64,000 nucleotides of DNA from Collybia mongolica (lineage: Eukaryota; Basidiomycota; Agaricomycetes; Agaricales; Clitocybaceae): the NCBI GenBank assembly GCA_013420905.1, contig JAAXNY010000005.1, forward strand, positions 186,001 to 250,000, read 5' to 3'. Both the position numbers and the translations under genes were made by a program. Below the pieces are notes generated by a model that worked only from the letters and a program-made list of their open reading frames with translations, was not told the origin of the DNA and ran no database searches. Positions 17,668-42,310 of the stretch are shown here, one piece after another. The stretch's first letter is position 1. Each line of letters opens with the position of its first letter.

Positions 17668-17796
17668 TTGGTTCTATCACAACAAGCTGGTTCTAGAAAT
17701 ATAGAGAAAAGTTAATCAAAAAAAACATAAGGACTCGTATCTGCCAGTAATGGCCCTCTACCTCAAGTTATCTAACTGGGGAAGCTCCAATCAGAA

Positions 17797-19807: not shown

Positions 19808-19809
19808 AC

Positions 19810-21416
19810 AGTGGCTCAAAAAACTGCCCCAATGTTTGTACATTTTTGAAAGATCAATATGGTATGAAGTGCTGACATAAGCAGGGGACCTGGGGTAATT
19901 ATGTAAGATACTATGACATCGTGGCTTTCCAATGGACCCTGGATCATGTGATTTGGATCAAAACCCATTAAGCTATAGGCCAAACAAAATGATTACTCAT
20001 TGGGGCAGTTTTTTGACCCTCTATTAATTTTCTATCTAATACTTTGTATGACCACCTTTTGCCTTTATAACTGCTTGTATCCACCTGGGCATACTTTCTA
20101 TCAGGTTTTGGCATACCTCTGGTGGAATTTCACCCCACTCTTCAGCCAATCTATCCCACAACTCATGTACTCCTTTGGGTGGTGTTGGATATTCTTTAAG
20201 ACGGCGCTTGAGATGTTCCCAAAGGTGTTCTATTGGATTCATGTCAGGGGATTGGGCAGGCCAGCCAAGGACTCAAATGTTGTTGTCTTCAAACCACTGT
20301 GTGGCCAGTCCAGATGTGTGTTTGGGGTCGTTATCTTGCTGAAAGTAGCGCTCGCCATCCACCATTTCCAACTTCTCAAAACTTTCCTGAACTCCACTCT
20401 CCAAAATTTCACAGTATTGAACCTTGTCCATGTTCCCCTGCACCTCTATGAGCTTTCCCACTCCATTCCACCCCATACAACCCCATACCATGAGGTTTCC
20501 TCCTCCTCCATGTTTGACAGTAGGTGATGTTGTTCTATCAGATGGTGGTTCTCCCCTTTGTTTCCAGACATAAACCTTTCCATCTGACCCAATCCTATTG
20601 ATTTTGGTCTCATCTGTCCATAGAACCCTTTTCCAGTCCTCCACAGTCCAGCTTTCATGATATTTTGCAAACTGGAGACGCCGGATGCGATGGGCTTGTT
20701 TGAGAAGAGGAGCTTTCCTCTTTGTAGCAGCATAAAATTGATTTTCCTTGAGTGCATTTCTGACTGTCTGGGGTGTGACAGGATTGGGGATGATGCCATT
20801 GATGAATTGGGTAGCCTGAACTGCATTATCAAGCTTCCCTGACTTGATTTGACGAATAATTGACTGTTTGTCACGAACAGACAGCTTGGAGGGGCGGCCA
20901 CCAAGGTTGTTTTCTTTGTTTCCATCCACATCTTTGCTGATCCTACTGATGGTACCCTTCCCTAGACCAGTTTTCTCCTTGATTTGACGCTGAGAATAGC
21001 CCTCATTGAGGAGAGAAACAACAGTATTGTGCTGAGCAGTAGAAATGGCTTTCATGATGGTGGTAAGAGGTCAAGAAGATGATTGAACCAATTCCAACAT
21101 GTCAAATTGATACAAATAAAGTCACATGACATTGTTTATTCTTCCCACAGTCCATAATGTTCTTGCATTGGATCATAAATGCCAGAATAATGGAAAATAA
21201 GATAAGGGTCAAAAAACTGCCCCAATGAGTAGCCATTTTGTTTGGCTTATAGCTTAATGGATATTGATCCAAATCACATGATCCAGGGTCCATTGGAAAG
21301 CCACGATGTCATAGTATCTTACATAATTACCCCAGGTCCCCTGCTTATGTCAGCACTTCATACCATATCGATCTTTCAAAAATGTACAAACATTGGGGCA
21401 GTTTTTTGAGCCACTG
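19810..21416 (-). mobile_element. Tc1-like element, left copy (TcA-L)
   Basis: A complete 1.6-kb element is bounded by CAGTGGCTC and GAGCCACTG, flanked by TA at 19808-19809 and 21417-21418. It has terminal inverted repeats of about 211 bp with slight differences between the two ends (near the transposase start AAGCC and GGCTACTC, near its end AGGCC and GATTACTC). The same pair of end variants occurs in the right copy (39797-41404), and the middle copy differs. It interrupts the Plavaka gene on its left and abuts Gypsy pol on its right. Confidence 0.95.
20036..21055 (-). pseudogene. Tc1/mariner DD34E transposase with in-frame TGA (left copy)
   Basis: 340 codons: an N-terminal helix-turn-helix (VVSLLNEGYSQRQIKEKTGL, ISRISKDVDGN), a second HTH region, then the catalytic core. 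Catalytic residues are the Asp of LWTDETKIN, the Asp of FQQDNDPKHTS and the Glu of SPDMNPIEHLW, with 34 residues between the last two (DD34E). The frame is interrupted once, at 20270-20272, by TGA directly before VLGWPAQSPDMNPIE. Relatives have a basic residue there, so CGA-to-TGA is likely. The frame is otherwise open to the final stop after GHTKY. The product, if read through, would excise and insert the element at TA. Confidence 0.9.
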
Positions 21417-22301
21417 TATGAAACTAAGTCCCCAATAGAAGTAAAAATAAAAGGTGGCACTATAATTGCTAAAGTGTTGAACAACCCTATCACATTGACC
21501 ACGGGAGAGTCAATGGGCTTGTCAAAAACCATTAGAGATGGGATAAAGAATATTGTAACTGCCAGACGTAAATCCCTCACCCAAACGGATGCTAACTTGC
21601 AAATAAACAAAACAAATGAGGAAGACACCTTACCCTTTGGGAGGGACTGGGAACTTGATGATAACTACTTACAGCATGACGCACTACCAGTAGAGTCAAT
21701 CCCATTCTAGTCTTTCTTCATCTCGGAGTATGACTGCGGCGGAATACCTAAGGGATCTATAATATGTGGAGACCCAGTCCTACAATATTTAGAGTCTTTA
21801 CCAGCCAGGGAAGAGCCCAAACAGTTGTATGTAGCAAAAGAATCAGCCTCTTTGCGCACAGTATATCCAGTAATAAATGGGGTAGGAATGGAGGAATCTT
21901 TATTAGATGGGGGATCCCAAATAGTATCAATGGCTAAACAAACGGCTTTAGACTTGGACATTTCATGGGATTCAGACATTGTCATACACATGCAGAGTGC
22001 TAATAAACAAGTGGAGAAAACAGTGGGATTAGCGCGCAACGTCCCTTTCTTGTTTAATGACATGGCCATTTACCTCCAAGTACATATCATAAATTCACCC
22101 ACATACAAAGTATTGCTTGGGAGACCGTTTGATACACTCACAGAAAGTCAGATCAAAAATGCTAGAGACAGGGGACAAGTAGTCACTATCACAGACCCTA
22201 ACACAGGACGGAGGTGTACTATCCCTACCCATGCAAAGGGATCACTGCCTAAGCTGTTGAAAAGACAAGTGGAGCAGGATTTTTGGCCTTTGATGAATTA
22301 A
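21417..22301 (+). pseudogene. Ty3/Gypsy gag end and aspartic protease
   Basis: The frame begins at the Tc1 border with YETKSPIEVKIKGG, the in-frame continuation of the gag fragment at 41405-42310 on the other strand. A TAG at 21708-21710 interrupts it, after which the same frame continues through SEYDCGGIPKG into a retropepsin. The active site is LLDGGSQI (DGGS in place of the usual DTGS/DSGS), the flap region is weak, and the end is YKVLLGRPFDTL. The protease would cleave the Gag-Pol polyprotein. The frame stops at 22299-22301, overlapping the RT frame by 19 bp at a run of five T. Confidence 0.8.
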
Positions 22302-24172
22302 TCCAAAGTGATCAAGGAGAGCTAGCTGTAGAAATTGCTGAAGATGAGAACGGAAACTTTATTATAACAGGTTATAGACACCCTACTGATAAGCAGAATT
22401 TTGGTCACAAAGAACTTAGAGATGTCTTTTTGTCTAGAAGTGATGTAAACATGAATAGTACAGTGCCTGAACGTGAATTACTAGCCACGTACTTGGCTTC
22501 AGTAGATGAGCGCAATGGACCAGTAATAAACTACGAGCAGAACAGAAGGGACCAGACAAGTACACCCACTAGACCTATGACATATGCTCAAGAACAGCCC
22601 ATGCTCAATAAAGCTTTAAGTAAATTAAGGCAGTGGCAAATTGGCACTAACAAGCATGGTCTTGGAACAGTAACAGGTGATAAGTGTAATATTGAGTCCA
22701 TGGATCAGCTAGTAGGAAAGAAGTATAAACCAGTACATTTGAAAACAAAACCAACACTGGCGGATCTGCCTGATAAATTTAGAATTATCAGAGATATAAA
22801 GGGTGACCCTTTAGCGGCTCTACCAGTTCTAACGCCTAACCCACCACCATTTAAACCAACTGGAAGGTATACTGAGGAAAGGCGTGCGGATTTCCAAAGA
22901 GTACACGAAGAAGAGAGCTTCTTAAAACCTAAAGAGATGGATATAATCCACGACTTTATGTGCAAACATAATGATGGTTTTGCTTGGAATGATAGTGAGC
23001 GCGGTAGCTTTAAGAAGGAATATTTTCCTCCTGTTGAAATACCAGTAGTCCCACATACGCCGTGGACAGAAAGGAACATTAGAATCCCACCAGGGATCTA
23101 TGAAGATGTTTGTAAAATCATTAAGACTAAAATTGATACAGGGGTCTACAAGAGGTCCAATTCATCATATAGGTCTAGATGGTTTACCATATTAAAGAAA
23201 GGTCCAGGAAAGAAACTTAGAATTGTACATAGTCTAGAGCCGCTAAATGCAGTTACAATAGCACACTTGGGTTTACCACCCACTACCAAAGAACTAGCAG
23301 AGCATTTTGCAGGGCGCACTTGTGGCGGAATGATGGATCTGTATGTAGGATATGATGAGAGGCCTTTAGCAGAAACCTCACACGATCTAACGATGTTCCA
23401 AACGCTGTTTGGCGTGCTGAGACTAGTAACACTCCCTATGGGATGGACAAATTCCATTCCAATATTTCATGATGATGTTACATACATTCTACAAGATGAG
23501 GTACCACATGTCACAATACCCTGCATTGATGATGTACCCATGCGCGGTCCAGCAAACCGCTATGAACTACCAGATGGAACAGAAGAAGAGCTACCTGGTG
23601 CTCCAGGTGTTAGACGCTTCTTCTGGGAACATATGCAAAATGTAAATCACGTCATACAGAGAATGAAGTATTCTGGAGGAACCTTTTCAGGATATAAGTC
23701 TACATTATGTGCAAGTGAAATTCTAGTAGTAGGACATAGATGTACTTATGAAGGACAAAAACCTACTACTGATAGGATTGGTGTAGTTGAAAGATGGGGA
23801 CCATGCAAAGATGTCAGTGAAGTAAGTGCTTACATGGGAACTATTGGTGTATGCAGGAATTTCATTAAAGATTTTGCCCGTATAGGCCAACCTATTCAAA
23901 AGTTAACTAGAAGTAGTGAACCTTGGATATGGGGGCCTGAGCAAGAAGAAGCACAGCAGCTATTATTAGATGCACTTAAAAATAGCCCCGCGCTCCGTCC
24001 AATTAATTACACCTGGAATACGCCAGTGGTATTGTCAGTAAATACGTCATGGAAAGCCGTAGGCTACTATATCTATCAGGAAGACCCCGATATACCTGGA
24101 AGAAAGCACTATGCTAGATTTGACTTGATAACTCTGAATGAGTGCAAAGCGCACTTCTCACAACCCAAATGA
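22283..24172 (+). pseudogene. Ty3/Gypsy reverse transcriptase and start of RNase H
   Basis: An uninterrupted 629-codon frame follows. RT motifs in order are KKGPGKKLRIVHSLEPLN, GGMMDLYVGYDERPLAETSH, FGVLRLVTLPMGWTNSIPIF, and the catalytic box CIDDVPMRGP (IDD where most RTs have YxDD). Then come VVGHRCTYEGQKPTTDRI, the connection domain, and WGPEQEEAQQLLLDALKNSP opening the RNase H-like region. It is entered from the protease frame by a -1 shift at GGATTTTTGG. It ends with TGA at 24170-24172 after HFSQPK, in a place where relatives read on. Its CpG content is higher than that of its surroundings, so it is a fairly recent insertion. Confidence 0.9.
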
Positions 24173-24620
24173 GAGCTATTTGGGTTAATGAGAGTTTTAA
24201 TGGCATGTTATTATTGGTTTATTGGAGTACAAAATTTGGTAGTAGAAACGGATGCAAAGTACATTAAGGGGATGTTATCAAACCCAAGTCTAGGACCTAA
24301 TGCAACGGTAAATAGGTGGATTGCTAGGATACTTATGTTCCACTTTACTTTGGTTCATAAAGCTGGTAAAGGCTTTGGCCCAGATGGTCTGTCAAGATGA
24401 GACGTGCGGCTAGGGGATCCTGTCTACCTGGACCCAGACAATGGTTACAATGAACCCTCAGGTCCTTTAAGGTTTATCAACCCAACTGAGGGATTGGATG
24501 ACCCTTTTGAATTGTCAGACTTTAAGGAAGAGATTGACATGCATGGCAGATATTTATTCCAACTCACCAAGGAAATCTCTGATTTTGAAGTTGAAGTAAA
24601 CAATGCTTGGGCTGGTGAAG
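24173..24620 (+). pseudogene. Ty3/Gypsy RNase H remainder, truncated
   Basis: After the TGA the same frame continues: GLMRVLMACYYWFIGVQNLV, VETDAKYIKGMLSN and LMFHFTLVHKAGKG, with GPDGLSR then TGA (24398-24400; CGA expected). It ends with LGDPVYLDPDNGY. Asp of VETDAKYIKG is the expected RNase H acidic residue. At 24620/24621 it is cut by the terminal motif of hAT-like element B. The integrase and 3' LTR are missing. Confidence 0.8.
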
Positions 24621-24998
24621 GAGGTCTTTACACTCCCCCACATCTTCCAGCAGATTCCAAGCGGAATCCTCAATTCAATTCCTGTCGGAATTTCGGCTGC
24701 AGAGGTTATAGAAAATGGCTGTAAAAATTGACAAAAATTCTGAACAGATTCCGCTCAGATTCTGAGCAGAATGAAATTCCACAGGAATTTTGGCTTCAGA
24801 ACACTGAAATTCTGACAGAGCCCACAGGAATTCCGGAGCATTGTAGGGACATGTAATAGACACGTTGTGGTCACGTGGTTAGTCATATGACTTATCGGCC
24901 ACCTCATTGATCAACAATGGGCACATCGTCAACCTCAACCACACTGAGGCCCAGCAACCCAGCACCCAGCAACCCAGCAAAAACTCTGCCAAATCACG

Positions 24999-25220
24999 AT
25001 GTCAACCCGCAAAGCTGCCACCACTGCCACTGCCAAAGCTGCCAAATGCCCAACAACAAGGAGTGGCCATGTCCGTGTGACGCCCCCACCTTCCACCTGT
25101 GGTCGCAAGCGTGCCACCTCAGCGACCAACAAGGACAACAAAGCCCACAAGCGCACAAAAGCCGCCACCACCATCAAGGCAAGCACCACCAAGCTGAAGG
25201 CAGGGTGCGTACCCGTTTGA
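24999..25220 (+). CDS. Short basic Lys/Ala/Thr-rich ORF inside element B
   Basis: 73 codons from an ATG, starting MSTRKAATTATAKAAKC and continuing KRATSATNKDNKAHKRTKAA; it is positively charged and low in complexity. A GT follows KLKAG, so this may be the first exon of a longer decayed gene. It sits just inside the subterminal repeats, the usual place for an N-terminal transposase exon. The assignment is inference; no zinc-finger or hAT dimerisation motif is seen. Confidence 0.3.
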   Translation: MSTRKAATTATAKAAKCPTTRSGHVRVTPPPSTCGRKRATSATNKDNKAHKRTKAATTIKASTTKLKAGCVPV

Positions 25221-25229
25221 TGTTGTTTT

Positions 25230-26460
25230 TTTCTGTATCCAGCATTGCTCTGATCTCAACTAACAAAGCTGTTTCAGTATTAACCAACCCCATATGCATG
25301 CACTAATATGCTGTAACCACCCCAGACCTTGTTTGTTTTGTGCGCTAGTGACTAATCATCGATGCATTATGCCAGGACAGGTGTGGAAAAAGATTTGTTT
25401 AAAGATCAACCACCTCGCACACTTGTTCGGTGAGTCACACTTCAACTTTGTCCCTTTTTTTACTAAATCGCACTTTCCACAGCAAGCACACATCCGTTTA
25501 CCACAACCAGGCCATTTCCTAAATGCCATTGACAACCTCTACCTGGACATATGTCCTTTTCGTCGTATGGTTCCCTGTGCATCTGCCTAGGTGTGTTCTT
25601 GGCCATTATCCCATAACTTGTCATTTTGAGCACCCCATTATTATTCCTGCACCGTTCAGCAAAGCGCCGACGGTTCCTGAGCGTCCCGCCTAGTGTTTAC
25701 ATGGCCATACCAGCCATTTGAGAAATGATGGCTTGTACCCCATACAACATATGCCAAGTTAGTGCCTCCTCATCACCCTACCCCATAAACTCAAATCTTT
25801 TATTGCAAGACAACCGCTGATCTGTATGGCATAACACTTGGTGTTCCTGGATGCGTTCCTATTCCTCTATTAAACGACCGCACGCTTGTCATGGATTGTG
25901 CCTTTGTTTCATATGGTGAGTGCCTTCTCTTCATCCTGGCCCTATAAATTTGTTTTTTTTATTGCACAACAACCGTCGAACCGTATGCACCAAGGGAGGG
26001 TGTTCCTGAGAGTGTTCATAGTTCTCTTTTGATTGACCACACCTCTTTCCCGATGCGCTTCGCCGTTGCATATGGTGAGTACCTGCTCTTACCTGCCACT
26101 AACTGTAACCAACTGATTTAATTAACTGCAAGATGACTGCTCAACAACACATCCTGAGCCTGGGTGTTTCTGAAAGCATACACTCTGCCCTTTCAACTGA
26201 CCATTCTCTTTTCAGGGTGTGCATCTTGCTTGCATATGGTCAGTGTAGGTTGAGATGTATTTTTAGTAATGTATTTTTCTTTGGGGCACTACTTGATATC
26301 ACACTCTGTTCTTACTTTTGATTGAGATCACTTTGAGGTTGTGTTTGAGTGTGAGAGTGATGGTGGATGTGTGATGTGTCTGATCTGTAAGTGAGGTGCA
26401 TGACTTTTGGTTGGAGTCCAAAATGTTAGATATACTATTGACTTTATTGACTGTTTTGAC
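25230..26460. other. Interior of element B without recognisable coding sequence
   Basis: Low CpG and several short ORFs. Loosely repeated stretches (CATATGGTGAGTG, about 25910, 26070 and 26230) recur at roughly 160-bp spacing, each followed by a splice-donor-like GTGAGT. They could be diverged tandem units. Confidence 0.35.
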
Positions 26461-26762
26461 TTAAAACTTATGAATTCCGATCAGAATCTGAGTGGAATGT
26501 TGCGGAATTCCTTTGAGAATTTTCTTCTTCCACACTTTGTAAGAAATTCCTCAAAATTCCATGGAATTCCGATGATTCCAATCGGAATTCTGTGTTCTAA
26601 GCAGAATCCAAGCAGAATATTGCGGAATTCCTCAAAGGAATTTTCTGTTTTAAAACTTTCTCAAAATCTTCCTGCATTCCTCTGGATTCCAATCAGATTC
26701 CTGTTGGAATTCCGGATTCCGATCAGAATCCTCTGCAGGATGTGGGGGAGTGTGAAGTACTG

Positions 26763-27868
26763 ACAGATACCAGGCTTGCCCAAAAATGTAGTTTCTCTGA
26801 TCAAGGGCACAAAGGCTATAACATGTATATTTTCTAGTGATGTAAAAGAATCTATTGAAAGACAACAAGTGTGGGTGTTACCCAACTTTGCAATGACTGA
26901 TTATGCTGCTCAAGGAAAGACTAGACCTTATAATGTAGTACATTTGAACAGCTGCTTCTCACATATGTCTTACTACACCTGCCTATCCAGAAGTGCAAGT
27001 GCAGCTGGAACAATCATCCTTCAGGGATTTGAACCTAGCATAATCACTAGAGGGTGTTCTGGGTATCTTAGGCAAGAACTCAGAGAGCATGAAATCTTGG
27101 ATGATATTACTAGACTTAGATATGAAAGCCTACTACCCAAAAATATTGAAGGAAACCTAAGAAATAGTCTTATCAGAGAGTACCAAAACTGGAAAGGCAC
27201 AGAACATGTCCCAGACAAAGTTGATAATGCTCTGAAGTGGTCATCTAATGATCCTATGCATTTATTACATACCTGTTGTCACTGATAGTCCATGGCAGAT
27301 TATAAAAAAGGAAAATACTAGGAATGAGAAAACCCTCAAAACTACCTCTGCTTTTGTACCTGCTACAGGAAGTATCTCTGTGTCAAAAAAGCGAAAAATA
27401 GATGAGGATAATAATGAAATGTCTCCTATAAAAAGGAAACTAGCCAAATCTCATACTTTCCAGATCCAACCACCACTTGGATCATCTTGTAATAAAGATG
27501 ATTACAGCTGCTCATATGATAGTTTGTTTGTTATCCTTTATGATATTTGGAAACATAACCCAGACCAGTGGACTGAGAATCTGCATGATGTTGATAGCAC
27601 ATATACTGACTTGTTGGTAGAAGGTTTTAATAAAATCCATCTTGGCTAGTCCTTAGAATGTGTCAGAGATAATGTTAGACAGTTATTACATAACAACTAC
27701 CCTGATATATTTCCTCTTGGACATGAAGGTGCCAGTATTGGACAGTTAGCTTATCATCTCCTCAAACCAAGAGGCTACAATGCTACATCTCAAGTTGTAT
27801 GCACTAAGTGCAACTATGAAGGTTTGGAAGTGGATGAAAGACATGCATATGCTGTTACAAGTCCTTAT
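26763..27868 (+). pseudogene. Helitron Pif1-type helicase C-terminus fused to cysteine-protease-like domain, truncated
   Basis: The frame from about 26776 reads the C-terminal helicase motifs: VWVLPNFAMTDYAAQGKTRP (motif V/VI region), NVVHLNSCFSHMSYYTCLSR, SASAAGTIILQGF, then LRQELREHEILDDITRLRYE. After a frame change near 27285 it continues with KRKIDEDNNEMSPIKRKLAK and CSYDSLFVILYDIW. The latter resembles the catalytic-Cys region of ubiquitin-protease-like domains found after Helitron helicases in basidiomycetes. A TAG at 27647 and the R1 insertion at about 27860 break it. The matching C-terminal part lies at 36484-36904. The helicase would unwind DNA during rolling-circle transposition. 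Confidence 0.8.
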
Positions 27869-28400
27869 GTTTACATAAGTAACTCGTTCATCATCCTGGG
27901 TTTGCGGGGAAAATTCAGTGTACCCTACAAGATCCAGTGTTGTTTTTCCCACAGTTAGTAATTTTGAAGTGTTCCGAGAATTCATTAGTACATGATCAGT
28001 AAACATTTTGAAGTACAGCAGTAAGACTTTGTAGTCATGGAAATATTTTTCTAACTGTGGGAATCAAAATTAGCTGACGTGCGGATTTCAAGCAAAAAAG
28101 GCAACTGCTAACATGGGCTGCATTTATAATATAAATTTGAGTTAATTGGTCTTTTTCTTGGGATATCTCAAGAATTAATCAATAACTGTCCACTGCATAA
28201 TCATGCTTACATTTGTTAACTACGCTGTTAGCTCTAACAGTGTAGTTGACAAACGTAAGCACAATTACAAGAGGCTTGTTCTGCTTTGGGCCAAACTTTT
28301 CCCACAATACAAAACATTGCATATCTCAACAATGACAAGACCTATGGATGCAATTTAAATTGCTACTACTAGATATGGTGAGGGGCTACCCAATGTAGAT
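27860..28400 (+). repeat. Dispersed repeat R1, copy B, 5' part
   Basis: Matches 11657-12190 from TTATGTTTACATAAG onward with scattered differences, interrupting the Helitron gene after RHAYAVTS. Its continuation is at 32170-33390, because the middle is expanded by tandem units and two transposon insertions. Confidence 0.75.
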
Positions 28401-28630
28401 ATTTATATGTATTTGTTTTTGTTTGTACACCTTCAAACATCATGATCAAAAGCAGCTCTCTCACTACAAGCATGTTACAAATGAATATCAAGTTTGTATA
28501 TGACTTTGCCACACAGATAGCCAAACAAACAATACCATCAAAGTTCCCACAATATAAATCATTGCATATCTCAACAACAACAAGGCCTATGGATGTAATT
28601 TAAATTGCTAGCATTAGGTATGGCGGGGTA

Positions 28631-29830
28631 CAGTTGCAGACAAACAAACATGGTAAGTTTGTTATCTCAGGAACAAAAATTTTGGAGCAAAACGGACTCC
28701 AGAAATGGACTCAGCGGGCCAAAATACGTCCAAAAACACCTTCTTTATATTTTTCCCATGACTTTTTGGGGGTGGTCAAATTTTTTGGGTCAGGTTTTCA
28801 AACATTTAGGGCACATGACTACTGTTAAGAACTGCTTCAAGCGACATCATGGCCTAGTTAGAGACCTGTTGGTGTTGGGACTGCTTCCTGACAGCCCACA
28901 CAGTAGCATCACTAGTAAGTCCTTTCCAGTATGCACTCATGAAATGCCAGGACCGATTGATAAAGTGTTGAATTATGTCCGGGGGGCAGGCATTGAGATA
29001 CCTAACAGCAACTTCTTTTGCCTCAGCAAAGTTCTGTTTTGGTACCTCATGATATCAATATTTAACCCAACCCCAGTACTGTACAGTTATTGAGAATGTG
29101 AAAGTTGACAGTAAATGAGATCACAAACCAATCCTGCACTTTTTTTTCTTCAGTCAAGGTGGCAGCCAATCCTCATCAGAGGGATCGTCTCCCTCCTCCA
29201 CCGCTAACAGGTACATTCTTTCCTGCAGCTCCTTGTCATCCCAGTCTCTGGAATTGGACAGCTCTTCAAGGTCTGGCTCAGATTCCATCCCATCATCATT
29301 AATGAGAGGTCTCATGCTGTCAAAGTAGATGCCCAAATCTGTATCCAGGTCATCATGTGGATTTGATTCAGTTGGGACAGGGTTACTCATTGGGGGTTCT
29401 TCATTTGGCAGGTGTGGTTTGGCTGTCTGGTCATGCTGGTTCCAAAGCCCTGTTATCTTTTGTGCATGTTTTGAGGGCCAACCGCAAGCCATAGTGCGCA
29501 CAAGTGGTTGGCGGGAATTGATGGCGGGGAATTGTTGAATTTTTCCTGGCCTCAAATCTCAACCAATCTTGGATTGTCAATGTGACCATGCTCAGCTTAT
29601 TGAGAACTGTCGATTCTGATTTTTTCATATTTCTTCCAATTTTTTTCAGGGGGTGGCCAAATTTTTGGGGTTGTCACCCCAAAAATATTTGAGATCAGAG
29701 GATTGGCTCATAGAATAATATCGATTGGGATCAGATATGTATGTTTTTATGGTTTTTGAGTGCCTAAAGTGTTTGCAGCCATGCCCAAAATTCCCCCGAG
29801 AAATTTACCGTGTTTGTTTGTCTGCAACTG
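28631..29830 (-). mobile_element. TA-inserting DDE transposon, internally deleted (TcB)
   Basis: A 1.2-kb element flanked by TA (28629-28630, 29831-29832). It has 26-bp terminal inverted repeats beginning CAGTTGCAGACAAACAAACA; the only mismatch is ATGG on the left versus ACGG (read inward) on the right, a TG/CG difference. It carries two pieces of one transposase gene on the minus strand with the middle missing. It is inserted in an R1 tandem unit. Confidence 0.85.
28840..29628 (-). pseudogene. Transposase remnant of TcB, N- and C-terminal pieces
   Basis: 29628-29431 starts MKKSESTVLNKLSMVTLTIQ, and 29555-29154 gives NQHDQTAKPHLPNEEP, DTDLGIYFDSMRPL and LEELSNSRDWDDKELQERM, ending EEGDDPSDEDWLPP. 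These are acidic N-terminal features I associate with a common Agaricomycete DDE transposase. About 29055-28840 encodes a C-terminal piece: VRYLNACPPDIIQHFINRSW, HFMSAYWKGLTSDATVWAVR and AMMSLEAVLNS, after a TAG. The catalytic core between them is deleted, so the element cannot move itself. Confidence 0.65.
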
Positions 29831-30083
29831 TAGTACCTCATGTATATGTTTGTAGGTGTTTGTATTTGTTTTTATTTTTCTAAACCTCATCAACAACAAA
29901 TTTCTTGCTACATATTGTAAATGAATACTGTCTGTATATCATTTCACCACACATCTGGCCAAACAAACAATAACACTAAAGAAATTTCCCACAATATAGA
30001 TGATACTTATCTCAGCAAATACAAAGCTGATGGACATACTACTACTAGACATTGTAAAGGATTACACTACATGTATGTTTATA

Positions 30084-31691: not shown

Positions 31692-32169
31692 TATGTATTT
31701 GTAGTTGTTTGTACCCTCCCAAATCACATTATTAACAACAACTTTTTGACTGCATATTACAAATGAATATCATCTGTATATCACTTTGCCAACATCTGGC
31801 CAAACAAACAATATTAATGAAGTTCCCACAATATAGATGATGCACATCTCAGCAAATACAAGGCTAACAGACACAATTGAAATTGCTACTACTCCTAGAC
31901 CTATGGAAGGGGTACACCAGGAAACATATATTTATATTTGTTTGTACTTTCCAAATTTGATTATAATATCTTGTTATATCTATTTTAACATCACATTTAT
32001 ATATTACTTGGCCATAAGCATAGCCAAACAAGTCAATGTGGATGCTCCTGGAATCTATAATGCTCAATATCTTGACAATGGCTAGCTATATGAGTATGAT
32101 TAAATATAATATGTGATAATACAACAAAAGAACACTTAACAGGTTGGAAGTTTGTCTTTGACAATGTCA

Positions 32170-33390: not shown

Positions 33391-33605
33391 AAGTATCAGT
33401 AAGAAGTAAACTAATATTTGTAAAAGGAATAAGAACATATCACAAGGTAGATAGAATTACACCAAGGTAGTCTCAAGGTGTACAGCAGCATATAGGTGCA
33501 TATACAGTAGAACAAGGTATATCTGAGCAACTAGATGTGGGGCACATATGCACCCACCTTTTACACATCTGGTTTGGGCACAGGGGTGATTGGCACTACT
33601 TGGTC
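33310..33605 (+). repeat. Repeat R2, copy a
   Basis: GCTGTGCAAAT, TTAGTAAGAAGTAAACTA-type and AGATGTGGGGCACATATGCA sequences recur in order at 38660-38895 (copy b) with about 80 percent visual similarity. There is no ORF. Confidence 0.5.
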
Positions 33606-33613
33606 TAGACAGC

Positions 33614-35023
33614 GAGGTCTTTACACTAAGCCACATAACCCGTGCGGACACACGGACTCCGCACGGAGTCTGCACGGACTCATTTGGCAGGACCGTCAGC
33701 CAGACAAGAATCCGTGTCCGCACCGAGTCCGCATCAATCCGCATAATTTTACGCGGACACGCGGACTAGCACGGACGGACAGCTCGCAGAGTCCGCGCGG
33801 CCAGTCGATTACTAATCGGATTAGTAATATAAATTTTATTTACACAAATTATATATACTATTTGTTATTAATAACATAACATAACGGCGGTGAAAAACTT
33901 GCATCCGACTAGGTTCGAACGCGTAAAGGCACGAACATTACGTCATATGTTTGGCGTTCATAACCGTTGGGCAAGGCGGGCATATCTAGCTACAGAATCA
34001 CTGGCCTCAAGTCAACGGACTTAGGTCACATGATTACGAGGCACGTGCAATGGTCACATTACCGTTGCCACGTCTTCGTTGGTTCTTTTCAACCACATCA
34101 ACGACGCCCGCCAAAACCGCCAACGCCGACACCAACGCCAACGCACCCACGCCGCCAATGCCAACGCATCGAACGCCAACCGACATCAACATGACGACGC
34201 ACAAGACGGTGTGGGGAGAAGGATAGAAACGGACGCGGAACGAGGGGACGACGAGGAAAGGGCGCCCCGAGGGGCAGAACCAGGTGAGTCGTACACCGCC
34301 GCTCACCCACACGCTCACCACGCAGCGCGTCCCCCCCTCCCCACTTCAGGAACTCGAAACGAAGGATACGGCCGCCAACAGCAACAGGAGGAAGGCGGCA
34401 ACGACAACGACAACGACGAAGACAGCAACAGCAACAGCAGCAACAGTGCCGACGAGGCCTGCGGCAACGACGGCAACAGCAGCGGCAGCGGCGGCACTAA
34501 CAACGGCGCGACGACGACGACGACAACTACAACAAAGACGACCACCACCACCACGAGGATGACGACGACTAAGGACAACGAGGACGACGACGACAACGAC
34601 GACTAAGGACAACGGGGACAACGACAAGACAAGCGGCCAGTGCCGCCGCTGCTGAAACCCAGGCCGCTGACGACGTCGCGGGGGCCGACGAGGACGACGG
34701 GGGGGCGGGGGCCCCCGCCCCCGCCTATATTAAATTATTTTATCATATATGTATTATACTTAGTAATAATATATGTTTTATTCTATTAATTATATAGATT
34801 GTTAGTAAGTAAAAGAGTAAGTAAGTGCTTCATAATAAAAGAAAGTAAGTGAGTCTGCGCGGACTCTGTGGAGTCCACACGGAGTCCGCGCGGAGTCCGT
34901 GCAGAGTCCGTGTGGACTTTGTGCTGTCCTTGCGGAGTCCGTACGGAGTCCGTGCGGAGTCCGCACGGACTTTTGCAGTCCGCGCGGAGTCCGCAAGGAC
35001 ATGTGGGGGAGTGTAAAGTACAG
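33614..35023 (+). mobile_element. hAT-like element A, young CpG-rich copy with 8-bp target duplication
   Basis: 1410 bp from GAGGTCTTTACACT to AGTGTAAAGTACAG, flanked on both sides by TAGACAGC (33606-33613 and 35024-35031). An 8-bp duplication is the hallmark of hAT elements. Both subterminal regions consist of reiterated GGACTCCGCACGGAGTCC-like palindromic units (33640-33810, 34855-35000). The interior is Asn/Asp/Thr/Arg low-complexity coding-like sequence without a recognisable transposase or dimerisation domain, so it is probably non-autonomous. It is strikingly rich in CpG compared with everything around it. Confidence 0.8.
34079..34606 (+). CDS. Low-complexity ORF inside young element A (doubtful)
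   Basis: 175 codons, rich in Asn, Asp, Thr, Gln and Arg, with NDNDNDEDSNSNSSNSADE and Thr runs. All three frames on both strands are open here because the DNA is built of GAC/AAC-type triplets, so openness is weak evidence. A GT-AG pair (AGGTGAGTC at about 34284 to TTCAG near 34350) could join exons. The decayed copy has the same layout in reverse. I cannot assign a function. Confidence 0.25.
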   Translation: MVLFNHINDARQNRQRRHQRQRTHAANANASNANRHQHDDAQDGVGRRIETDAERGDDEERAPRGAEPGESYTAAHPHAHHAARPPLPTSGTRNEGYGRQQQQEEGGNDNDNDEDSNSNSSNSADEACGNDGNSSGSGGTNNGATTTTTTTTKTTTTTTRMTTTKDNEDDDDNDD

Positions 35024-35031
35024 TAGACAGC

Positions 35032-35512
35032 ACATCCAGGGGTGCACACCCACCCACCAGGTGATGTTCTACCATATGGAATACATCACTGCACCACCCA
35101 TGTCCACCATGCTAGCTGCTCACTAGCAGATGTAGGCAGGCAGTCACTGGTAATGTGGCAGGTGCCTCTGTGGTTCTTGTTGCAGCTCTTATTGTTGTGA
35201 TTTGGCAGTTGTTATTATCAGGGGTGGGTATGAGAGAGGGTGGTGGTATCCATGGCAGTGGGACCTAGCATTGTATTTGGCAGTGTTGTGCACAATCATA
35301 AGGCAGGGAGGTGATGGGAGGGGCAGCTGGGGATATAATGGTGGTGGTTGACAACAAGGCTGATGGGTGATGTGGCACCCATCAACAATACTCAGCCATT
35401 GCCAGTAATGGCCAAGAGTAGGCAGCAGGGGTCATTATAAAAACAAGCACCTTGGACTGACAAGCTCATATTACCAAATGGTTAATCTGCATGCTTTATG
35501 CATATGACATGT
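35032..35512. other. No recognisable gene
   Basis: AT/GT-rich sequence with no ORF of note between the young hAT-like element and repeat R3 copy c. Confidence 0.4.
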
Positions 35513-36483
35513 AACCTTGAGGCCTTGTATTTGACTCTCCAAAATATTGCATTTTTGTGCATTAAATAAGCAATGGTAACTATAATTAAGTAAGCAATCT
35601 GGACAGTCTGCATGGACTTCATGAGGAGTTGTTCCAAGCTGGGTCTGAGCATCCAAGTAATAGTGTGGATTTACTGACTTGTTTTTAAGGAAAATGCCTA
35701 GATATATATTGTTATCTTTTATTGGTGGATATTTGTATAGGATCTATAAACACCAACTTCTATTGGCATATGCCATGGATATGGGTGAAGTTGTAAGTGG
35801 ATCACTTGTTTGTCCACATCTAGCCATCAGAATCACTATTGCACAGCTTGCATAGCCTCACTGTTATATCTATTATTCTCTCACACACTGCTTTAACCCC
35901 TTGACAGATAGTAGTTTACTCTGGACTGACATATCACAGATGGATTGTTGCATCAGTAGAGTTACTGATATCAGATTCTGTTGTTATTTGAGACATAGCC
36001 ACAATGTACTGTATATAAGGTGCCCCTTCCTCTCCATGGAAGGGCACCTTTGCAATAGACTTGGGCTGGGTTCTCTACTCATAGTCAAGCCTCTAGTGCT
36101 CTATGCTCATCCCTTCCCTGCATGGTTGTTCATACTGTGTATACTGCTCCCTGTCTGAGCTTCTTGGCAACATGATCCCATACAGAAATGCAACAAGTAT
36201 TTGGCAAGCTCAAATGTGTGGTCATATTACATCTTCATGTTGGGCATCCATCAGGCCTTCCATGTTGTCAAGCTACTCCCTGTACCCTACAATCTAATTC
36301 TAGGACAATGCCTGACAAGTGTTCCAGAACCAAACTTATCAACAACAAAAAGTAATATAAAGTTGAAGAGATTCTGGATAGCTAATTCTGTTGCAACAAA
36401 CTGGTTCTAGAAATATAAAGAAAAGTTAATCAAAAAAAAAACATAAGGACTTGTATCTGTCAGTAATGGCCCTCTACCTCAAG
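35513..36483 (+). repeat. Composite repeat R3, copy c
   Basis: 35513-35670 matches 15949-16110, and 35670-36483 matches 14930-15650 and 16330-16870. The end encodes the same chromovirus-tail fragment as copy a (FHVVKLLPVPYNLILGQCL, then a shifted VEEILDS). This copy lacks the Tc1 end present at 15.9 kb. Confidence 0.6.
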
Positions 36484-36904
36484 TACATGCTATTGATTCA
36501 ACTCCAGGATCTACCCAAAAATGGATAACTCCATTTGAATATCCAGTAGCATATACAGTACATGTCCAGAATGCTTATGTCCCATGGTAAAGCAGCTTCA
36601 GTACAACTATGTTCCAAACATTCTGGCACTTGAGTATCCTCACACCAATATAAAGACCAACCACAAGATTGAATTTTTGGTAGATGAAAAGTGCACCACA
36701 CTCTATCTGAGGGGGGTTGTGTATCATGGAGAAAATCACTTTACCTCCAGAATAATTTCTAGCAAAGGCAAAATATGGTACTATAATGGGATGCTCACTG
36801 AACAAGTATCTATTGAGGACAGAAGTTTAAGGGATTTATATGATAATGACTTGAGAAGGTATCAGAACAGAGATTTAGTAGTAGCTGTATATGCTCAAAA
36901 ATAA
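36484..36904 (+). pseudogene. C-terminal part of Helitron-associated protease-like protein
   Basis: 36584-36904 reads NYVPNILALEYPHTNIK, HKIEFLVDEKCTTLYLRGV, then VYHGENHFTSRIIS and IWYYNGML, ending VVAVYAQK and TAA. The segment L.GV.Y.G..HFTSR....G..W..DG is the region after the helicase in basidiomycete Helitrons that carries the presumed catalytic His of the cysteine-protease-like domain. Its N-terminal partner with the Cys motif is at 27285-27868. Repeat R1 copy B, two transposons, element A and repeat R3 now separate the two halves by 8.6 kb. A stop near 36587 follows a short leader in the same frame. Confidence 0.65.
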
Positions 36905-39411
36905 TATTTATATGAAAATAACTTGTAATACAATTATGATGGTCAGCTTGTGTGAAATGGACTTCTGATTCACATTACCAAAAAAAGGATGAGTACCTGC
37001 TACTCCAAGTATTGGCCCTCTAAGTCAAAATCAATGTCTTAGTTGGTCTGCTCTACAGAAAAAAACACAAAAATCATCAGAACTAACTTTTTTCTATGAT
37101 GATGGGCAGTGAATGGGCATTCACATAGTTTTCATGTATTTGGCATGCTTATGTGATGGAATATATCATGTGACATGTATTAATAAATAGAGAAATCAAT
37201 CCTCTTTGTATTTCAGGTAAATATAGTAGTAGTTGTTGATTTTTCCAATGTTATAAAGGTCAATTATTATATTTACCTTCAATTCTAAATACAAAAAATT
37301 ACCTATATCTGCATAAGGTGGTATTTCCCAAGCACATCTACTTCTTGAAGGAAGACCACAGAGAGTCCCAAGGCAAGATGCTGCCAATGGGCCACAAGAA
37401 CAGAAGCATGTGAGTGCGTGAATCTATACAACATTGGAAAAGAGATAGCTCAAACTGTTGGAGAGAGTGCTGGTGGAGGTACTGCAGATCTGACAGGAGT
37501 CTGTATGGGTGCCAGTTTGGATACTGTAGGTGTTGTTGTCCTATGGCTAGTAAAGTAGAGGTACATATTTCTGCTTGTCACACAAGTTTTTTTGATGTCT
37601 TAACTTTTTTACCCCATTGCTTGATCTTGTAAGGAGATGTTCAAGAATGAGAACTCCAGAAATATTACATTGGAGTGTTTCTTTGTGATGATCACTGAGG
37701 TGAGCATTAAGGTAACTATATATCAGTTGGAGTACTACAAATACAGTATGCTAATTAATTGGAATAAACTCTAAGTGTGGTGAGGCCACAAAAAGCACCA
37801 AACTCACTATTGAATACTTTCTATGCAGTCTCTTGAAAAATTTCAAGTCAATAATTACAACCAGATTGGCAGCCTCTATGCCAAAACCCAAATGTCTCTT
37901 ATATCCTATACCACCAATTTACAGACCAGCCCTATAGGCTCCCAATATACCTCCATAGTATTTATCTAATGTACCTATATAGATGGTGTCATCCATGATC
38001 AGATGGCATCTTTGCAGTAACTTAGGCCCAGATCTGTCTCTTGTATCAAAGCATGATTAGTCCTTAGGTGCCCTCTTCCCTATGTGGCTGAGTCTGTTCA
38101 TATTACTCTCCCCTCTGGGTACTCAGTGCAATGTGACCCTTTATAAACCTTGGGTTAGTGCAGCACAACATAGAATCACCCTTACACATCCTTCTCCCAG
38201 TACTGCAGCATCCAATTAATGCATGTGCTGTCATTGGGGAACTACTGTATAGTGGTGCCAATCACATGTACAGTTTGCATGAGGTGAGGAAAGTGTGTTT
38301 CTTTTTGTACATTCTGTTAAAATCATGTGACATCGCTAGCTTGAGTTGGCCACCTGTTTGTTGCAAACAGTTTCCCACATCCAAGTGGTATTAAATACTG
38401 CAACATTCCATTGGGTGAAGGAGTAGCAGTGGTTGGATGAACATTATTGCTGGGTATAGACAAACATGATACAAGTATTGACAGTCACTGAAATGTTTCT
38501 GCTTGGTCTGCAACAGTAGTGTAAGTGCTTGTATCACACCCCATACCCAAAGGGGACACAAAATTCAGCCATGGCACCAGGGGACTAAGAAGGCTTTGAT
38601 ATAAGAGAGAGATCTGGGGCTAGGTCACTGCAAAGGTGCCATCTGATCACAGATGACACCATCTATATAGATATGTTGGATAAATGCTATAGAGGTATGT
38701 TGGAAGCATAGGGCTGTGCAAATGATATGGATGTAATGTGTTAGTAAGAAGTAAACTACTGTCCATGGAAGAGGCTAAGGAGTGTGTTACAAAGTAGGTA
38801 GGATTATACTGAGGTAGTCTTAAGGCATATGGTGGCATATGGTGTACAATATATCCAAGTCACTAGATGTGGGGGCACATATGCACTCCTCTTACAGGTA
38901 GTTCAAAGTGCATTAAACACACTCTTTAGCAAATCAACACACAAGTCTTGATCCATGCTAGTGCTAGTTTGTAAGTTTTCCTGGTTTTAGTTTTGGTTTG
39001 GGTTTGGTTGTTGGATGGAGAGGGAGAGTCATGCACTGTGATTACAGAGGTAGTACAGTGCTCCAAGTCACTTATTCACTCAACATGTGCCTATGGTAGG
39101 TTTTGTACATAATAAGGGTGTTCTCTATTAACCAAAGCACCCATTACTCAATACAATGCATGACACAAGACACCTACCCACAATCCCACGTCTCTTCCTA
39201 AAACCTAGAGTTAAACTCACAACAGCATCTTCCCACCTCCCCCAAGCTTAACCCACCCAACAAATCCCACCATACCACCCACCACAAAACCCCTCACCCA
39301 CAACCATCAGTAAAAAAATAAGTCTAAACAAGTCAGGTAAATATCAGGTATAATGACATAAGTCCTTTAAAAGTCATGTAAATACTACCAAATACAATTA
39401 CATCAGCAACA
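36905..39411. other. Repeat debris, no recognisable gene
   Basis: 36950-37250 contains inverted pieces of R1 (37187-37240 is the reverse complement of about 12810-12865). 38660-38895 is repeat R2 copy b. The rest is AT-rich with chance ORFs below 80 codons. Confidence 0.5.
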
Positions 39412-39794
39412 TCAGCTGACTTCCCAGTCATTTTCCTCTTCTAAGTCCATTGATGCCCCACTTTCAGCTGGAGTGAGGCCTAGGAGGCCAGCATGTTTTC
39501 TCAAAACATATATGTTTTGAGACTTTGCCTTCCAAATTCCAACAAGATTCTGTATATGTATAGTTTCTATTGCAGCCATTTGAATGGGACTTGGCCATCT
39601 TCCACAAATGACAGTTTGTATAGGGGCTTGAAGCTGCCCAAGTGGGTTGTATATCATTATGAGCTTGACATGGTTTCCATATTCTATTGAATAGAATGCA
39701 ATAGCCTCTCCAAAATTTTCACCAGGTTGGGCTTTTGGTATGAGTTCAGGATAATAGAGTCAAAGTAATTTTATCAATTCATGCTGTATCATGA
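39412..39794 (-). pseudogene. Plavaka/Tnp2 transposase C-terminus, separated from its gene
   Basis: Reading leftward from the TA of the right Tc1 copy gives IMIQHELIKLL, TGA, LYYPELIPKAQPGENFGEAI, FYSIEYGNHVKLIMIYNPLG, then WKAKSQNIYVLRKHAGLLGL and DLEEENDWEVS with a stop at 39412-39414. The first codon continues exactly the codon left open at 19807 on the other strand. The TGA stands where Arg (CGA) is likely. It has no start of its own. Confidence 0.8.
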
Positions 39795-39796
39795 TA

Positions 39797-41404
39797 CAGT
39801 GGCTCAAAAAACTGCCCCAATGTTTGTACATTTTTGAAAGATCGATATGGTATGAAGTGCTGACATAAGCAGGGGACCTGGGGTAATTATGTAAGATACT
39901 ATGACATCGTGGCTTTCCAATGGACCCTGGATCATGTGATTTGGATCAATATCCATTAAGCTATAAGCCAAACAAAATGGCTACTCATTGGGGCAGTTTT
40001 TTGACCCTTATCTTATTTTCCATTATTCTGGCATTTATGATCCAATGCAAGAACATTATGGACTGTGGGAAGAATAAACAATGTCATGTGACTTTATTTG
40101 TATCAATTTGACATGTTGGAATTGGTTCAATCATCTTCTTGACCTCTTACCACCATCATGAAAGCCATTTCTACTGCTCAGCACAATACTGTTGTTTCTC
40201 TCCTCAATGAGGGCTATTCTCAGCGTCAAATCAAGGAGAAAACTGGTCTAGGGAAGGGTACCATCAGTAGGATCAGCAAAGATGTGGATGGAAACAAAGA
40301 AAACAACCTTGGTGGCCGCCCCTCCAAGCTGTCTGTTCGTGACAAACAGTCAATTATTCGTCAAATCAAGTCAGGGAAGCTTGATAATGCAGTTCAGGCT
40401 ACCCAATTCATCAATGGCATCATCCCCAATCCTGTCACACCCCAGACAGTCAGAAATGCACTCAAGGAAAATCAATTTTATGCTGCTACAAAGAGGAAAG
40501 CTCCTCTTCTCAAACAAGCCCATCGCATCCGGCGTCTCCAGTTTGCAAAATATCATGAAAGCTGGACTGTGGAGGACTGGAAAAGGGTTCTATGGACAGA
40601 TGAGACCAAAATCAATAGGATTGGGTCAGATGGAAAGGTTTATGTCTGGAAACAAAGGGGAGAACCACCATCTGATAGAACAACATCACCTACTGTCAAA
40701 CATGGAGGAGGAGGAAACCTCATGGTATGGGGTTGTATGGGGTGGAATGGAGTGGGAAAGCTCATAGAGGTGCAGGGGAACATGGACAAGGTTCAATACT
40801 GTGAAATTTTGGAGAGTGGAGTTCAGGAAAGTTTTGAGAAGTTGGAAATGGTGGATGGCGAGCGCTACTTTCAGCAAGATAACGACCCCAAACACACATC
40901 TGGACTGGCCACACAGTGGTTTGAAGACAACAACATTTGAGTCCTTGGCTGGCCTGCCCAATCCCCTGACATGAATCCAATAGAACACCTTTGGGAACAT
41001 CTCAAGCGCCGTCTTAAAGAATATCCGACACCACCCAAAGGAGTACATGAGTTGTGGGATAGATTGGCTGAAGAGTGGGGTGAAATTCCACCAGAGGTAT
41101 GCCAAAACCTGATAGAAAGTATGCCCAGGTGGATACAAGCAGTTATAAAGGCAAAAGGTGGTCATACAAAGTATTAGATAGAAAATTAATAGAGGGTCAA
41201 AAAACTGCCCCAATGAGTAATCATTTTGTTTGGCCTATAGCTTAATGGGTTTTGATCCAAATCACATGATCCAGGGTCCATTGGAAAGCCACGATGTCAT
41301 AGTATCTTACATAATTACCCCAGGTCCCCTGCTTATGTCAGCACTTCATACCATATTGATCTTTCAAAAATGTACAAACATTGGGGCAGTTTTTTGAGCC
41401 ACTG
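39797..41404 (+). mobile_element. Tc1-like element, right copy (TcA-R)
   Basis: 1608 bp between TA dinucleotides (39795-39796, 41405-41406), in the opposite orientation to the left copy. It has the same end variants as the left copy: GATCGATATGG, AAGCC and GGCTACTC on the transposase 5' side, GATCAATATGG, AGGCC and GATTACTC on the 3' side. Its left flank is Plavaka DNA and its right flank is Gypsy gag. Confidence 0.95.
40158..41177 (+). pseudogene. Tc1/mariner DD34E transposase with in-frame TGA (right copy)
   Basis: Protein sequence identical by eye to the left copy, including Gln in QAHRIRRL and PRWIQ near the end, with the shared TGA at 40941-40943. N-terminal HTH and DD34E residues are intact as described for the left copy. 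Confidence 0.9.
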
Positions 41405-42310
41405 TAAGTTGGACCATGCTTGGTATTAAAATTAGGTAGCGGATCAACTGGTCCAGGGTTGCCTTCTGTTCTCCGGGGTATGTAGGGTACCGTGGGCACA
41501 TCAATGTAGGGCAATTCTTTTTGTATGGGTGACTTTACTGACGGTTCAACAATTTTCACTTTCTTTTTCCTAGGAGGCAGCGCTACTGGCTCCTCTTTGC
41601 TACTACTCTGACTACTCTCCAGATCATTACTTATACTTTCTTGATGACTATTTCTATTTTTACTATGGTCCTCAGGCTGTCTCTTGGAACGCGATCTAGT
41701 TGTAGGTCTAGCGTGTTCCTTAGCCTCCTTCATCGGACCTAATTGAAACCCGACTCTTTAACCGTGTTTTGGTTATTGAGCTCTGCTACCTGCCCTAATA
41801 AGGTACTCATTTGTGCTTGTAAGGCTACTATGTCAGGATTTGGCGTGCTCTTTGCAGTAGGATTATAGTTATTATATATATATTCCTGTTTCTGCATCTG
41901 AGGCGGTACTGGCAACGCAGTCTGCGCGCTCTGTTGTCCTAACATTTGTTGCACTTGAAATTGGGCCATTTGTGCCATTATGGCTTTCAAGGTTCCAATG
42001 TCGTTACTATTGTCTACTGCATTATGTGACTGATGCATAACTGACAATACTCCTGGAGCAGGTCCTTCCATGACATCTCCGTAATAAAGGGCCGCTACCT
42101 TCTTTGAATGGAAGTGTTCCACTTTATCTTTCAATGATACCGTTTCTGGTTCTCTTGGAATATATGATCCGTCTGGTAAGCATACTCCTCCATTTGTGTT
42201 GGTTTTTATTTTCCCTTCTTCAAAATGTTTCTGTTTCTTGGGACAGGCCATTATGAAGTGTCCGGGTGTAAAACAGTAGTGACATTTATACGCATTCAGT
42301 CTTTGTGGTT
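41405..42310 (-). pseudogene. Ty3/Gypsy gag C-terminal half with CCHC zinc knuckle
   Basis: Reading leftward from about 42310, LNAYKCHYCFTPGHFIMACP is a CX2CX4HX4C zinc knuckle that would bind genomic RNA. Then come CLPDGSYIPREPETVSLKDK, a Gln-rich stretch (MAQMAQFQVQQMLGQQSAQT) and, after a stop or frame change at 41736, a basic/acidic linker (TRSRSKRQPEDHSKNRN, PPRKKKVKI). It ends NTKHGPT at the Tc1 target TA. The next codon is completed by 21417 on the other strand (YETKSPIEV). It belongs to the same element as the pol fragment at 21.4-24.6 kb. Confidence 0.85.

What the first reader, a model, noticed from the sequence alone, without database searches (positions are those of the whole stretch)
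19808..41406. Two genes with swapped halves reveal an 18.4-kb inversion (or assembly flip) between inverted Tc1-like copies
The Plavaka frame stops at the left Tc1 (…PFANLTN, 19807) and resumes on the opposite strand beyond the right Tc1 (IMIQHELIKLL, 39794). The Gypsy frame stops at the right Tc1 (…NTKHGPT, minus, 41405) and resumes at the left Tc1 (YETKSPIEV, plus, 21417). Reversing 21417-39796 rejoins both frames to the exact codon with a single TA each. Two independent genes giving the same answer make coincidence very unlikely. The left and right Tc1 copies also share the same end variants. It is either ectopic recombination between inverted Tc1 copies or a mis-oriented contig segment.
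Basis: partly seen in the sequence, partly recalled or inferred. Interest (0 to 1): 0.9.

Follow-up and report, generated by a model that had tools for sequence, protein, structure and literature searches.

The report
Nested Tc1-bounded inversions in a mushroom
In the genome assembly of what is likely an edible mushroom, an 18-kb stretch of DNA lies flipped between two copies of one jumping gene, inside a second, 33-kb flip, and the jumping gene itself likely made the inner flip, so it would be reshaping chromosomes as it moves.

Summary
Left (L) and right (R) Tc1 copies, inverted and differing at 1 of 1608 positions, bound an 18.4-kb segment. Searched as separate pieces, the swapped halves are continuous in all close copies fetched: Tnp2/Plavaka-like element 3 of 3, LTR-like element 19 of 19, each across a single TA.

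New here: the segment lies inside a second, 33.3-kb inversion (11174-44483), also shown by two elements, without Tc1, with 4-6 bp duplicated at both junctions (staggered break, end joining). A second Tc1-bounded swap exists on contig C1 (L009/L028), with a TA-to-TA loss of about 242 bp. Among 95 adjacent Tc1 pairs, those under 20 kb are 17 inverted, 2 direct; farther pairs 36 and 40.

I favour aberrant transposition (hybrid or reversed element ends) over ectopic recombination, about 50:38: L and R share a variant absent from 28 other sampled copies, and the second pair shows the loss aberrant transposition predicts. A non-inverted strain carrying both Tc1 insertions would favour recombination.

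The parts
19809..21416 (-). Left Tc1-like copy (L), 1608 bp, at the left inner breakpoint
   Evidence: TA at 19807-19808 and 21417-21418
39797..41404 (+). Right Tc1-like copy (R), 1608 bp, at the right inner breakpoint
   Evidence: TA at 39795-39796 and 41405-41406
30084..31691 (+). Middle Tc1-like copy (M), 1608 bp; its two flanks are continuous in L072 and L009 (ordinary insertion, internal control)
21417..39796 (.). Inner inverted segment, 18.4 kb
11174..44483 (.). Outer inverted segment, 33.3 kb, enclosing the inner one
44484..47262 (-). 5' part of the Tnp2/Plavaka-like element (continuous with 11174-11489 in C21 copy L070; the match ends at 47262 because the fetched locus ends there)
11174..11654 (+). 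Next part of the same element
17766..19808 (+). Next part of the same element, after a 6.1-kb insert; Tnp2 domain in ORF 17776-19341
39307..39796 (-). 3' end of the same element; 4 of 4 copies (window and 3 others) end at the same base here
41405..42315 (-). Gag-like part of the LTR-like ('gypsy') element
   Evidence: (zinc knuckle just under its cut-off)
21417..23800 (+). Pol-like part of the same element, severed by the inner inversion (matches end about where the fetched loci end)
   Evidence: (RNase H under its cut-off)
11103..11175 (+). Left piece of another repeated element (pol-like by eye) cut by the outer inversion
   Evidence: 3 of 3 fetched copies (11112-11175 in one)
44113..44483 (-). 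Right piece of that element
11174..11179 (+). ATTTAC at the left outer breakpoint
44484..44489 (-). ATTTAC again, in inverse orientation, at the right outer breakpoint (duplication expected of a staggered break)
40938..40940 (+). In-frame stop in R, shared with L (20273-20275) and M (31225-31227); absent from 28 of 28 other fetched copies

Best explanation
In this assembly an 18.4-kb segment is inverted between two oppositely oriented Tc1-like copies that split a Tnp2/Plavaka-like element and an LTR-like element, and Tc1 transposase most likely made the flip in one aberrant transposition that would have joined the ends of two sister copies to a new TA. Shown: both breakpoints are TA-bounded Tc1 copies, both host elements are continuous in other copies, and the segment lies within a 33.3-kb inversion of another type. 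Inferred: one Tc1 was the donor, in one of the two host elements; after replication the left end of one sister and the right end of the other acted as a hybrid transposon and inserted into a TA of the second host element, which inverts the DNA between and leaves a near-identical Tc1 at each end. Transposase would have come from other copies, because L, M and R carry an in-frame stop. The outer inversion is inferred to come from two double-strand breaks, one staggered by 4-6 bases, joined without long homology.
For: Both inner junctions: 3 of 3 and 19 of 19 continuous copies with one TA. L and R differ at 1 of 1608 positions, a CpG-type change, and share 48G, absent from 28 of 28 other fetched copies, as expected of sisters from one donor. 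A second pair, L009 (+) and L028 (-) on contig C1, 3.4 kb apart, has exchanged flanks: the two right flanks meet at one TA in L025. Its two left flanks face each other in 6 of the 6 places that hold both of their inner ends, but 239-246 bp apart, with TA at both edges in the two of these fetched. Such a loss is what aberrant transposition from two donor sites gives (PMC2775673 section 10 part 1, PMC8225341 section 15). Adjacent Tc1 copies under 20 kb apart are 17 inverted to 2 direct, against 36 to 40 beyond, as expected if inverted pairs are made together with inversions. Sleeping Beauty (a Tc1/mariner transposon, family recalled) caused local deletions and inversions in mice (PMC1584263, passages).
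Against: For the window pair nothing excludes recombination: PMC2775673 calls the two outcomes strikingly similar, and a TA target duplication cannot show exchange. Sister copies also arise by a local hop, and M, which shares the stop in an ordinary insertion, shows that related copies do land nearby. The 242-bp loss could be a second recombination between direct copies. Loss of direct pairs by recombination plus clustering could give the 17:2 bias. The 20-kb cut was chosen after seeing the list, which covers 100 of 265 copies. Only two close inverted pairs could be scored as swapped.
Confidence: 0.5

Rival explanations
1. Ectopic (non-allelic homologous) recombination: two Tc1 copies were inserted in opposite orientation, one in each host element, and a crossover between them flipped the DNA between.
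For: Opposite orientation, 1613-nt arms with one difference and exchanged flanks without any loss at the window pair are what PMC2775673 and PMC8225341 describe for this process. Recombination between direct copies would also delete direct neighbours, in keeping with only 2 direct close pairs.
Against: It needs two sister insertions first (shared 48G) and a separate event for the TA-to-TA loss at the second pair. Chimeric halves could not be shown, because the parents would have been near-identical.
Confidence: 0.38
2. Assembly artefact: the assembler joined the wrong sides of two identical Tc1 copies and turned the segment.
For: At least 40 near-identical 1.6-kb copies were scored and 265 internal matches counted; I had no reads.
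Against: The matching published assembly rests on 228x PacBio of a monokaryon with contig N50 3.63 Mb. The enclosing inversion shares no repeat of 80 nt or more between its breakpoints, so the locus is rearranged anyway, and the second Tc1 pair bears a 242-bp loss that a turned segment alone would not make.
Confidence: 0.06
3. The four junctions are not two inversions but one complex event (several breaks rejoined at once), with Tc1 at two of the joints.
For: Inner and outer junctions lie within 33 kb and cut the same Plavaka-like element twice.
Against: The two kinds of junction differ: TA with whole Tc1 copies, against a 4-6-bp duplication without Tc1. Two simple nested inversions account for the four junctions.
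Confidence: 0.05

Closest known systems
Galileo inversions of Drosophila buzzatii (2j, 2q7, 2z3; PMC2775673, section 10 part 1 and passages read)
   Same: Two copies of one DNA transposon in opposite orientation at the two ends, with exchanged flanks; for 2z3 no loss
   Different: There chimeric halves and exchanged 7-bp target duplications showed recombination; here the copies are near-identical and the duplication is always TA. Here 18.4 kb, in a fungus, nested in another inversion
Alternative transposition of maize Ac/Ds (reversed-ends transposition; PMC8225341, section 15 and passages read)
   Same: Transposon at both ends of an inversion; loss of the fragment between two donors, as at the second pair L009/L028
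   Different: Ac/Ds, studied experimentally in maize; here inferred from sequence. The window pair shows no loss
Sleeping Beauty rearrangements in mice (PMC1584263, passages read)
   Same: Tc1/mariner family (recalled); mobilization accompanied by local deletions and inversions
   Different: Engineered concatemer donor and much larger rearrangements
impala (Fusarium), known to me here only as cited in PMC8225341
   Same: Fungal transposon cited there for rearrangement by non-standard transposition; a Tc1/mariner element by recall
   Different: Paper not read; no structural comparison made
End-joining inversions with inverted duplications (Ranz et al. 2007, as cited in PMC8225341 and PMC12368964)
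   Same: Outer 33.3-kb inversion: short inverted duplication at the junctions and no long shared repeat
   Different: Duplication only 4-6 bp, breakpoints inside repeated elements

Membership tests
Tc1/mariner transposon | TA target-site duplication | tested here: met
   30 of 30 fetched copies (L and R among them) bounded by TA; M also
Tc1/mariner transposon | Terminal inverted repeats | tested here: met
   229-231-nt terminal repeats, 95-98%
Tc1/mariner transposon | Tc1-type transposase domain | tested here: met
   PF01498 HTH_Tnp_Tc3_2, 39.7 bits, cut-off 31.5, in L and R frames
Tc1/mariner transposon | DD34E catalytic triad | not tested
   Seen by eye only in the DNA; no call made
Inversion by ectopic recombination between transposon copies | Copies in opposite orientation at both ends with exchanged flanks | tested here: met
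Inversion by ectopic recombination between transposon copies | Both copies chimeric (halves from different parents) | tested here: inconclusive
   L and R differ at one site only, so chimerism cannot show
Inversion by ectopic recombination between transposon copies | No loss or gain at the breakpoints | tested here: met
   Window pair: single-TA sites in the continuous copies, nothing missing. The second pair does not meet it: about 242 bp missing
Inversion by aberrant transposition | Transposon copies at both ends identical when the donor was a single site | tested here: met
   1 difference in 1608, shared 48G; not exclusive to this mechanism
Inversion by aberrant transposition | Loss of DNA between donors when there were two donor sites | tested here: met
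   Second pair only: 6 of 6 places with both inner ends have 239-246 bp there
Inversion by aberrant transposition | Active transposase at the time | not testable with these tools
   28 of 28 other fetched copies have a 344-codon open frame where L, M and R stop after 265; activity unknown
End-joining inversion (outer) | Short inverted duplication at both junctions and no shared repeat there | tested here: met
   ATTTAC at both; window self-comparison shows no repeat pair of 80 nt or more covering both breakpoints
Tnp2/Plavaka-like element | Tnp2 transposase domain | tested here: met
PF02992, 35.1 bits, cut-off 28.6.
Tnp2/Plavaka-like element | Terminal inverted repeats at both ends | tested here: inconclusive
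   3' end fixed by 4 of 4 copies; its inverse was not found elsewhere in the window within 3 mismatches
Ty3/gypsy LTR element | Reverse transcriptase-RNase H and zinc knuckle | tested here: inconclusive
   PF17919 22.9 of 29.8 and PF13696 26.5 of 27 bits, both under the cut-off

The most novel reading that the evidence does not exclude
One recently active Tc1 family is an inversion engine in this mushroom: most close inverted Tc1 pairs in its genome are scars of separate small inversions made by aberrant transposition, so the family rewires the order of local DNA each time it misfires, and orientation counts of neighbouring copies become a genome-wide gauge of that activity.
Probability: 0.3. 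Interest if true: 0.75.

Novelty: new member of a known kind. Interest (0 to 1): 0.5.

Why it matters
Inversions bounded by transposons are usually inferred from comparing strains; here the broken elements at each pair of breakpoints reveal the earlier order inside a single genome, so the approach can be tried on any assembly rich in nested elements. It also gives a sharp test between two textbook mechanisms that leave nearly the same scar, and a simple genome-wide statistic (orientation of close copies) that may help tell which one acts.

Tried and rejected
Rejected: coincidence (3 of 3 and 19 of 19 continuous copies). Rejected: the outer junction as an ordinary transposon insertion with a target duplication, because the pieces beside it are the two sides of one repeated element, side by side in 3 of 3 fetched copies. 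Rejected: a Tc1-derived short element as the 242-bp stretch at the second pair; by eye its sequence is not Tc1. Reversed-ends transposition from two direct copies is not needed for the window pair, since nothing was lost there.

Led nowhere: TIR and target-duplication tests for the Plavaka-like element (5' TIR not found; the flank next to its 3' end does not recur beyond chance). The LTR-like element is interrupted at 42315 and its other end was not reached, so its LTRs and target duplication were not used. A third close inverted pair, L011/L005: one flank of each was searched, each answer capped at 40 scored candidates, and no common place was seen. Of 31 Tc1 copies (30 fetched plus M), 4 are swapped (L001/L002, L009/L028), 6 ordinary (M, L006, L013, L015, L025, and L016 to within 24 nt), 9 have one or both flanks whose continuation was found on neither their own other flank nor any fetched flank (L003, L004, L008, L017, L018, L019, L026, L027, L030), and 12 are uninformative (first four matches per flank tested). 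The 9 may be further swaps or simply ends of elements. C10 copy L068 lacks the stretch across the outer junction and was not counted there. One search sliced M one base off, so its M rows are wrong; one search replaces them.

Literature: no paper on Tc1 or inversions in this species appeared in the listings; the last was too broad to be a real test.
Full report
What was checked. The window is G000:C5:186001-250000, in a genome of 45,972,033 bases in 26 contigs. Contig lengths C8 = 3,638,271 and C12 = 866,782 equal the contig N50 and N90 printed for Leucocalocybe mongolica strain s29, also 26 contigs (PMC7858605; abstract, passages and sections 15 and 17 read); the published total, 45,983,313, is 11,280 bases larger. 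That the window comes from this assembly is an inference from these numbers. An ORF in the window (48778-50019, minus) is closest to a co-chaperone of Collybia nuda, 82% over 80% of its length, which agrees with an agaric mushroom. The published strain is a single-spore monokaryon sequenced with 228x PacBio.

The observation. Three Tc1-like copies lie in the window: L (minus), M and R (plus). L and R differ at one of 1608 positions. The Tnp2/Plavaka-like halves find the same three other close copies (C21, C10 and C5 near 2.69 Mb), and in 3 of 3 the halves abut. The LTR-like halves were tested in 19 fetched copies (40 places listed, own copy included, of 120 candidates) and lie side by side in 19 of 19. 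At the join each of these copies has a single TA, and the natural frames run on through it. The inner inversion is therefore secure as an arrangement of this assembly relative to both parent elements.

A second, outer inversion. Looking for the 5' end of the Plavaka-like element showed that it lies on the right of the window in minus orientation: copy L070 (C21) matches window 47262-44484 (minus) and then window 11174-11489 (plus) without a break, and L069 (C5) shows the same junction. The third copy, L068 (C10), lacks this stretch and says nothing on it. The other side of both breakpoints is another repeated element, pol-like by eye: in 3 of 3 fetched copies (40 places listed, own copy included, of 103 candidates), window 11103-11175 (plus; from 11112 in one) is followed after 3 bases by window 44483-44113 (minus). 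Reversing 11174-44483 would therefore restore two elements at once, as for the inner one. ATTTAC stands at both junctions; by eye 4-6 bases are duplicated and 3-5 bases of the other element are missing. No repeat pair of 80 nt or more in the window covers both breakpoints. This is the signature given for end joining of a staggered break (Ranz et al. 2007, as cited in PMC8225341 section 15 and PMC12368964 passages). Because the inner inversion lies wholly inside the outer one, their order cannot be told. In present coordinates the Plavaka-like element is cut into 47262-44484 (minus), 11174-11654 and 17766-19808 (plus), and 39796-39307 (minus), ending at 39307, where 4 of 4 copies end.

Controls. 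Of 31 Tc1 copies examined, five (M, L006, L013, L015, L025) have flanks that continue each other in another locus, and L016 does so to within 24 nt; so ordinary insertions look ordinary. A blind search for the continuation of each flank among all fetched flanks (first four matches per flank) returned only two exchanged pairs: L001/L002, the window's R and L, on both sides, and L009/L028 on contig C1, on the right flanks. In that second pair the two right flanks meet at one TA in L025 and are not alike, so no palindrome is involved. The two left flanks face each other in the 6 places that hold both inner ends, 242, 242, 242, 246, 241 and 239 bp apart (computed from the coordinates; other listed places hold only one end). 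The C1 locus has thus lost that stretch; TA stands at both edges in the two places fetched, L076 and L077. By eye the stretch is not Tc1-derived. Nine copies have unmatched flanks and 12 gave no information, so the proportion of swapped copies in the genome is unknown.

Genome-wide orientation. An internal 40-base pattern, up to 3 mismatches, occurs 265 times (142 plus, 123 minus; reversed control 0). Positions were listed for 100 copies (C1 to C4, and C5 up to 2.33 Mb). Of 95 adjacent pairs, 19 lie under 20 kb: 17 inverted, 2 direct; the 76 others are 36 inverted, 40 direct (Fisher p 0.0008; strand shuffles p 0.00035). Uniform placement would give about 11 close pairs, half of them inverted, so inverted pairs exceed that; clustering with loss of direct pairs is not excluded. 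The 20-kb cut was chosen after seeing the list. L, M and R supply one inverted and one direct pair whichever way the inner segment lies.

Which mechanism. Two processes leave almost the same scar (PMC2775673 section 10, part 1): recombination between inverted copies gives chimeric copies; insertion of a hybrid element from the same site gives identical copies; separate donor sites add a deletion or duplication. In the window pair the copies are nearly identical. They share 48G, seen in 0 of 28 other fetched copies, and with M an in-frame stop seen in 0 of 28. Their only difference is a CpG-type change, which could easily have arisen later. This fits one donor, but also a local hop followed by recombination. 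The second pair's TA-to-TA loss fits aberrant transposition in one step and recombination only in two. The excess of inverted close pairs fits a process that makes inverted pairs. I therefore put aberrant transposition at about 0.5, recombination at 0.38, misassembly at 0.06 and one complex event at 0.05. Precedents: Sleeping Beauty (PMC1584263, passages), Ac/Ds (PMC8225341, section 15), and impala as cited there. L, M and R stop after 265 codons of the frame, so supply of transposase from other copies is inferred.

Verdict. A sound first-stage finding, correct in detail, incomplete in scope. TE-bounded inversions are a known kind; the nested pair, the second Tc1 scar and the orientation bias make this one more useful than most. 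No function is claimed for the flip: it breaks two mobile elements, and no host gene was identified inside it, though only three of its open frames outside the Tc1 copies were compared with Pfam.

Noticed in passing
G000, 100 of 265 Tc1 copies (C1-C4, C5 to 2.33 Mb): Neighbouring Tc1 copies under 20 kb apart are 17 inverted to 2 direct; farther pairs are 36 to 40.
   Followed up: partly
G000:C1:4843564-4850207 (L009, L028): A second Tc1-bounded swap with 3.4 kb between the copies and a loss of about 242 bp in one host element.
   Followed up: partly
11655-17765: A 6.1-kb insert inside the Plavaka-like element, with a 5-bp overlap of the flanking matches that looks like a target duplication.
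   Followed up: no
39733-39742: The window's Plavaka-like copy lacks about 332 bp present in 3 of 3 other close copies, between matches that overlap by 10 bp.
   Followed up: no
42315: The LTR-like element's gag-like part stops here; the next kilobase (42315-43322) matches DNA upstream of another Plavaka-like copy at 86%.
   Followed up: no
20273-20275, 31225-31227, 40938-40940: All three window Tc1 copies share an in-frame stop absent from 28 of 28 other fetched copies, pointing to local spread of one lineage.
   Followed up: partly
48778-50019 (-): Likely host gene, like DnaJ subfamily C member 3, 82% to Collybia nuda.
   Followed up: no
350-1279 (-): CxC2 cysteine cluster domain associated with KDZ transposases.
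   Followed up: no
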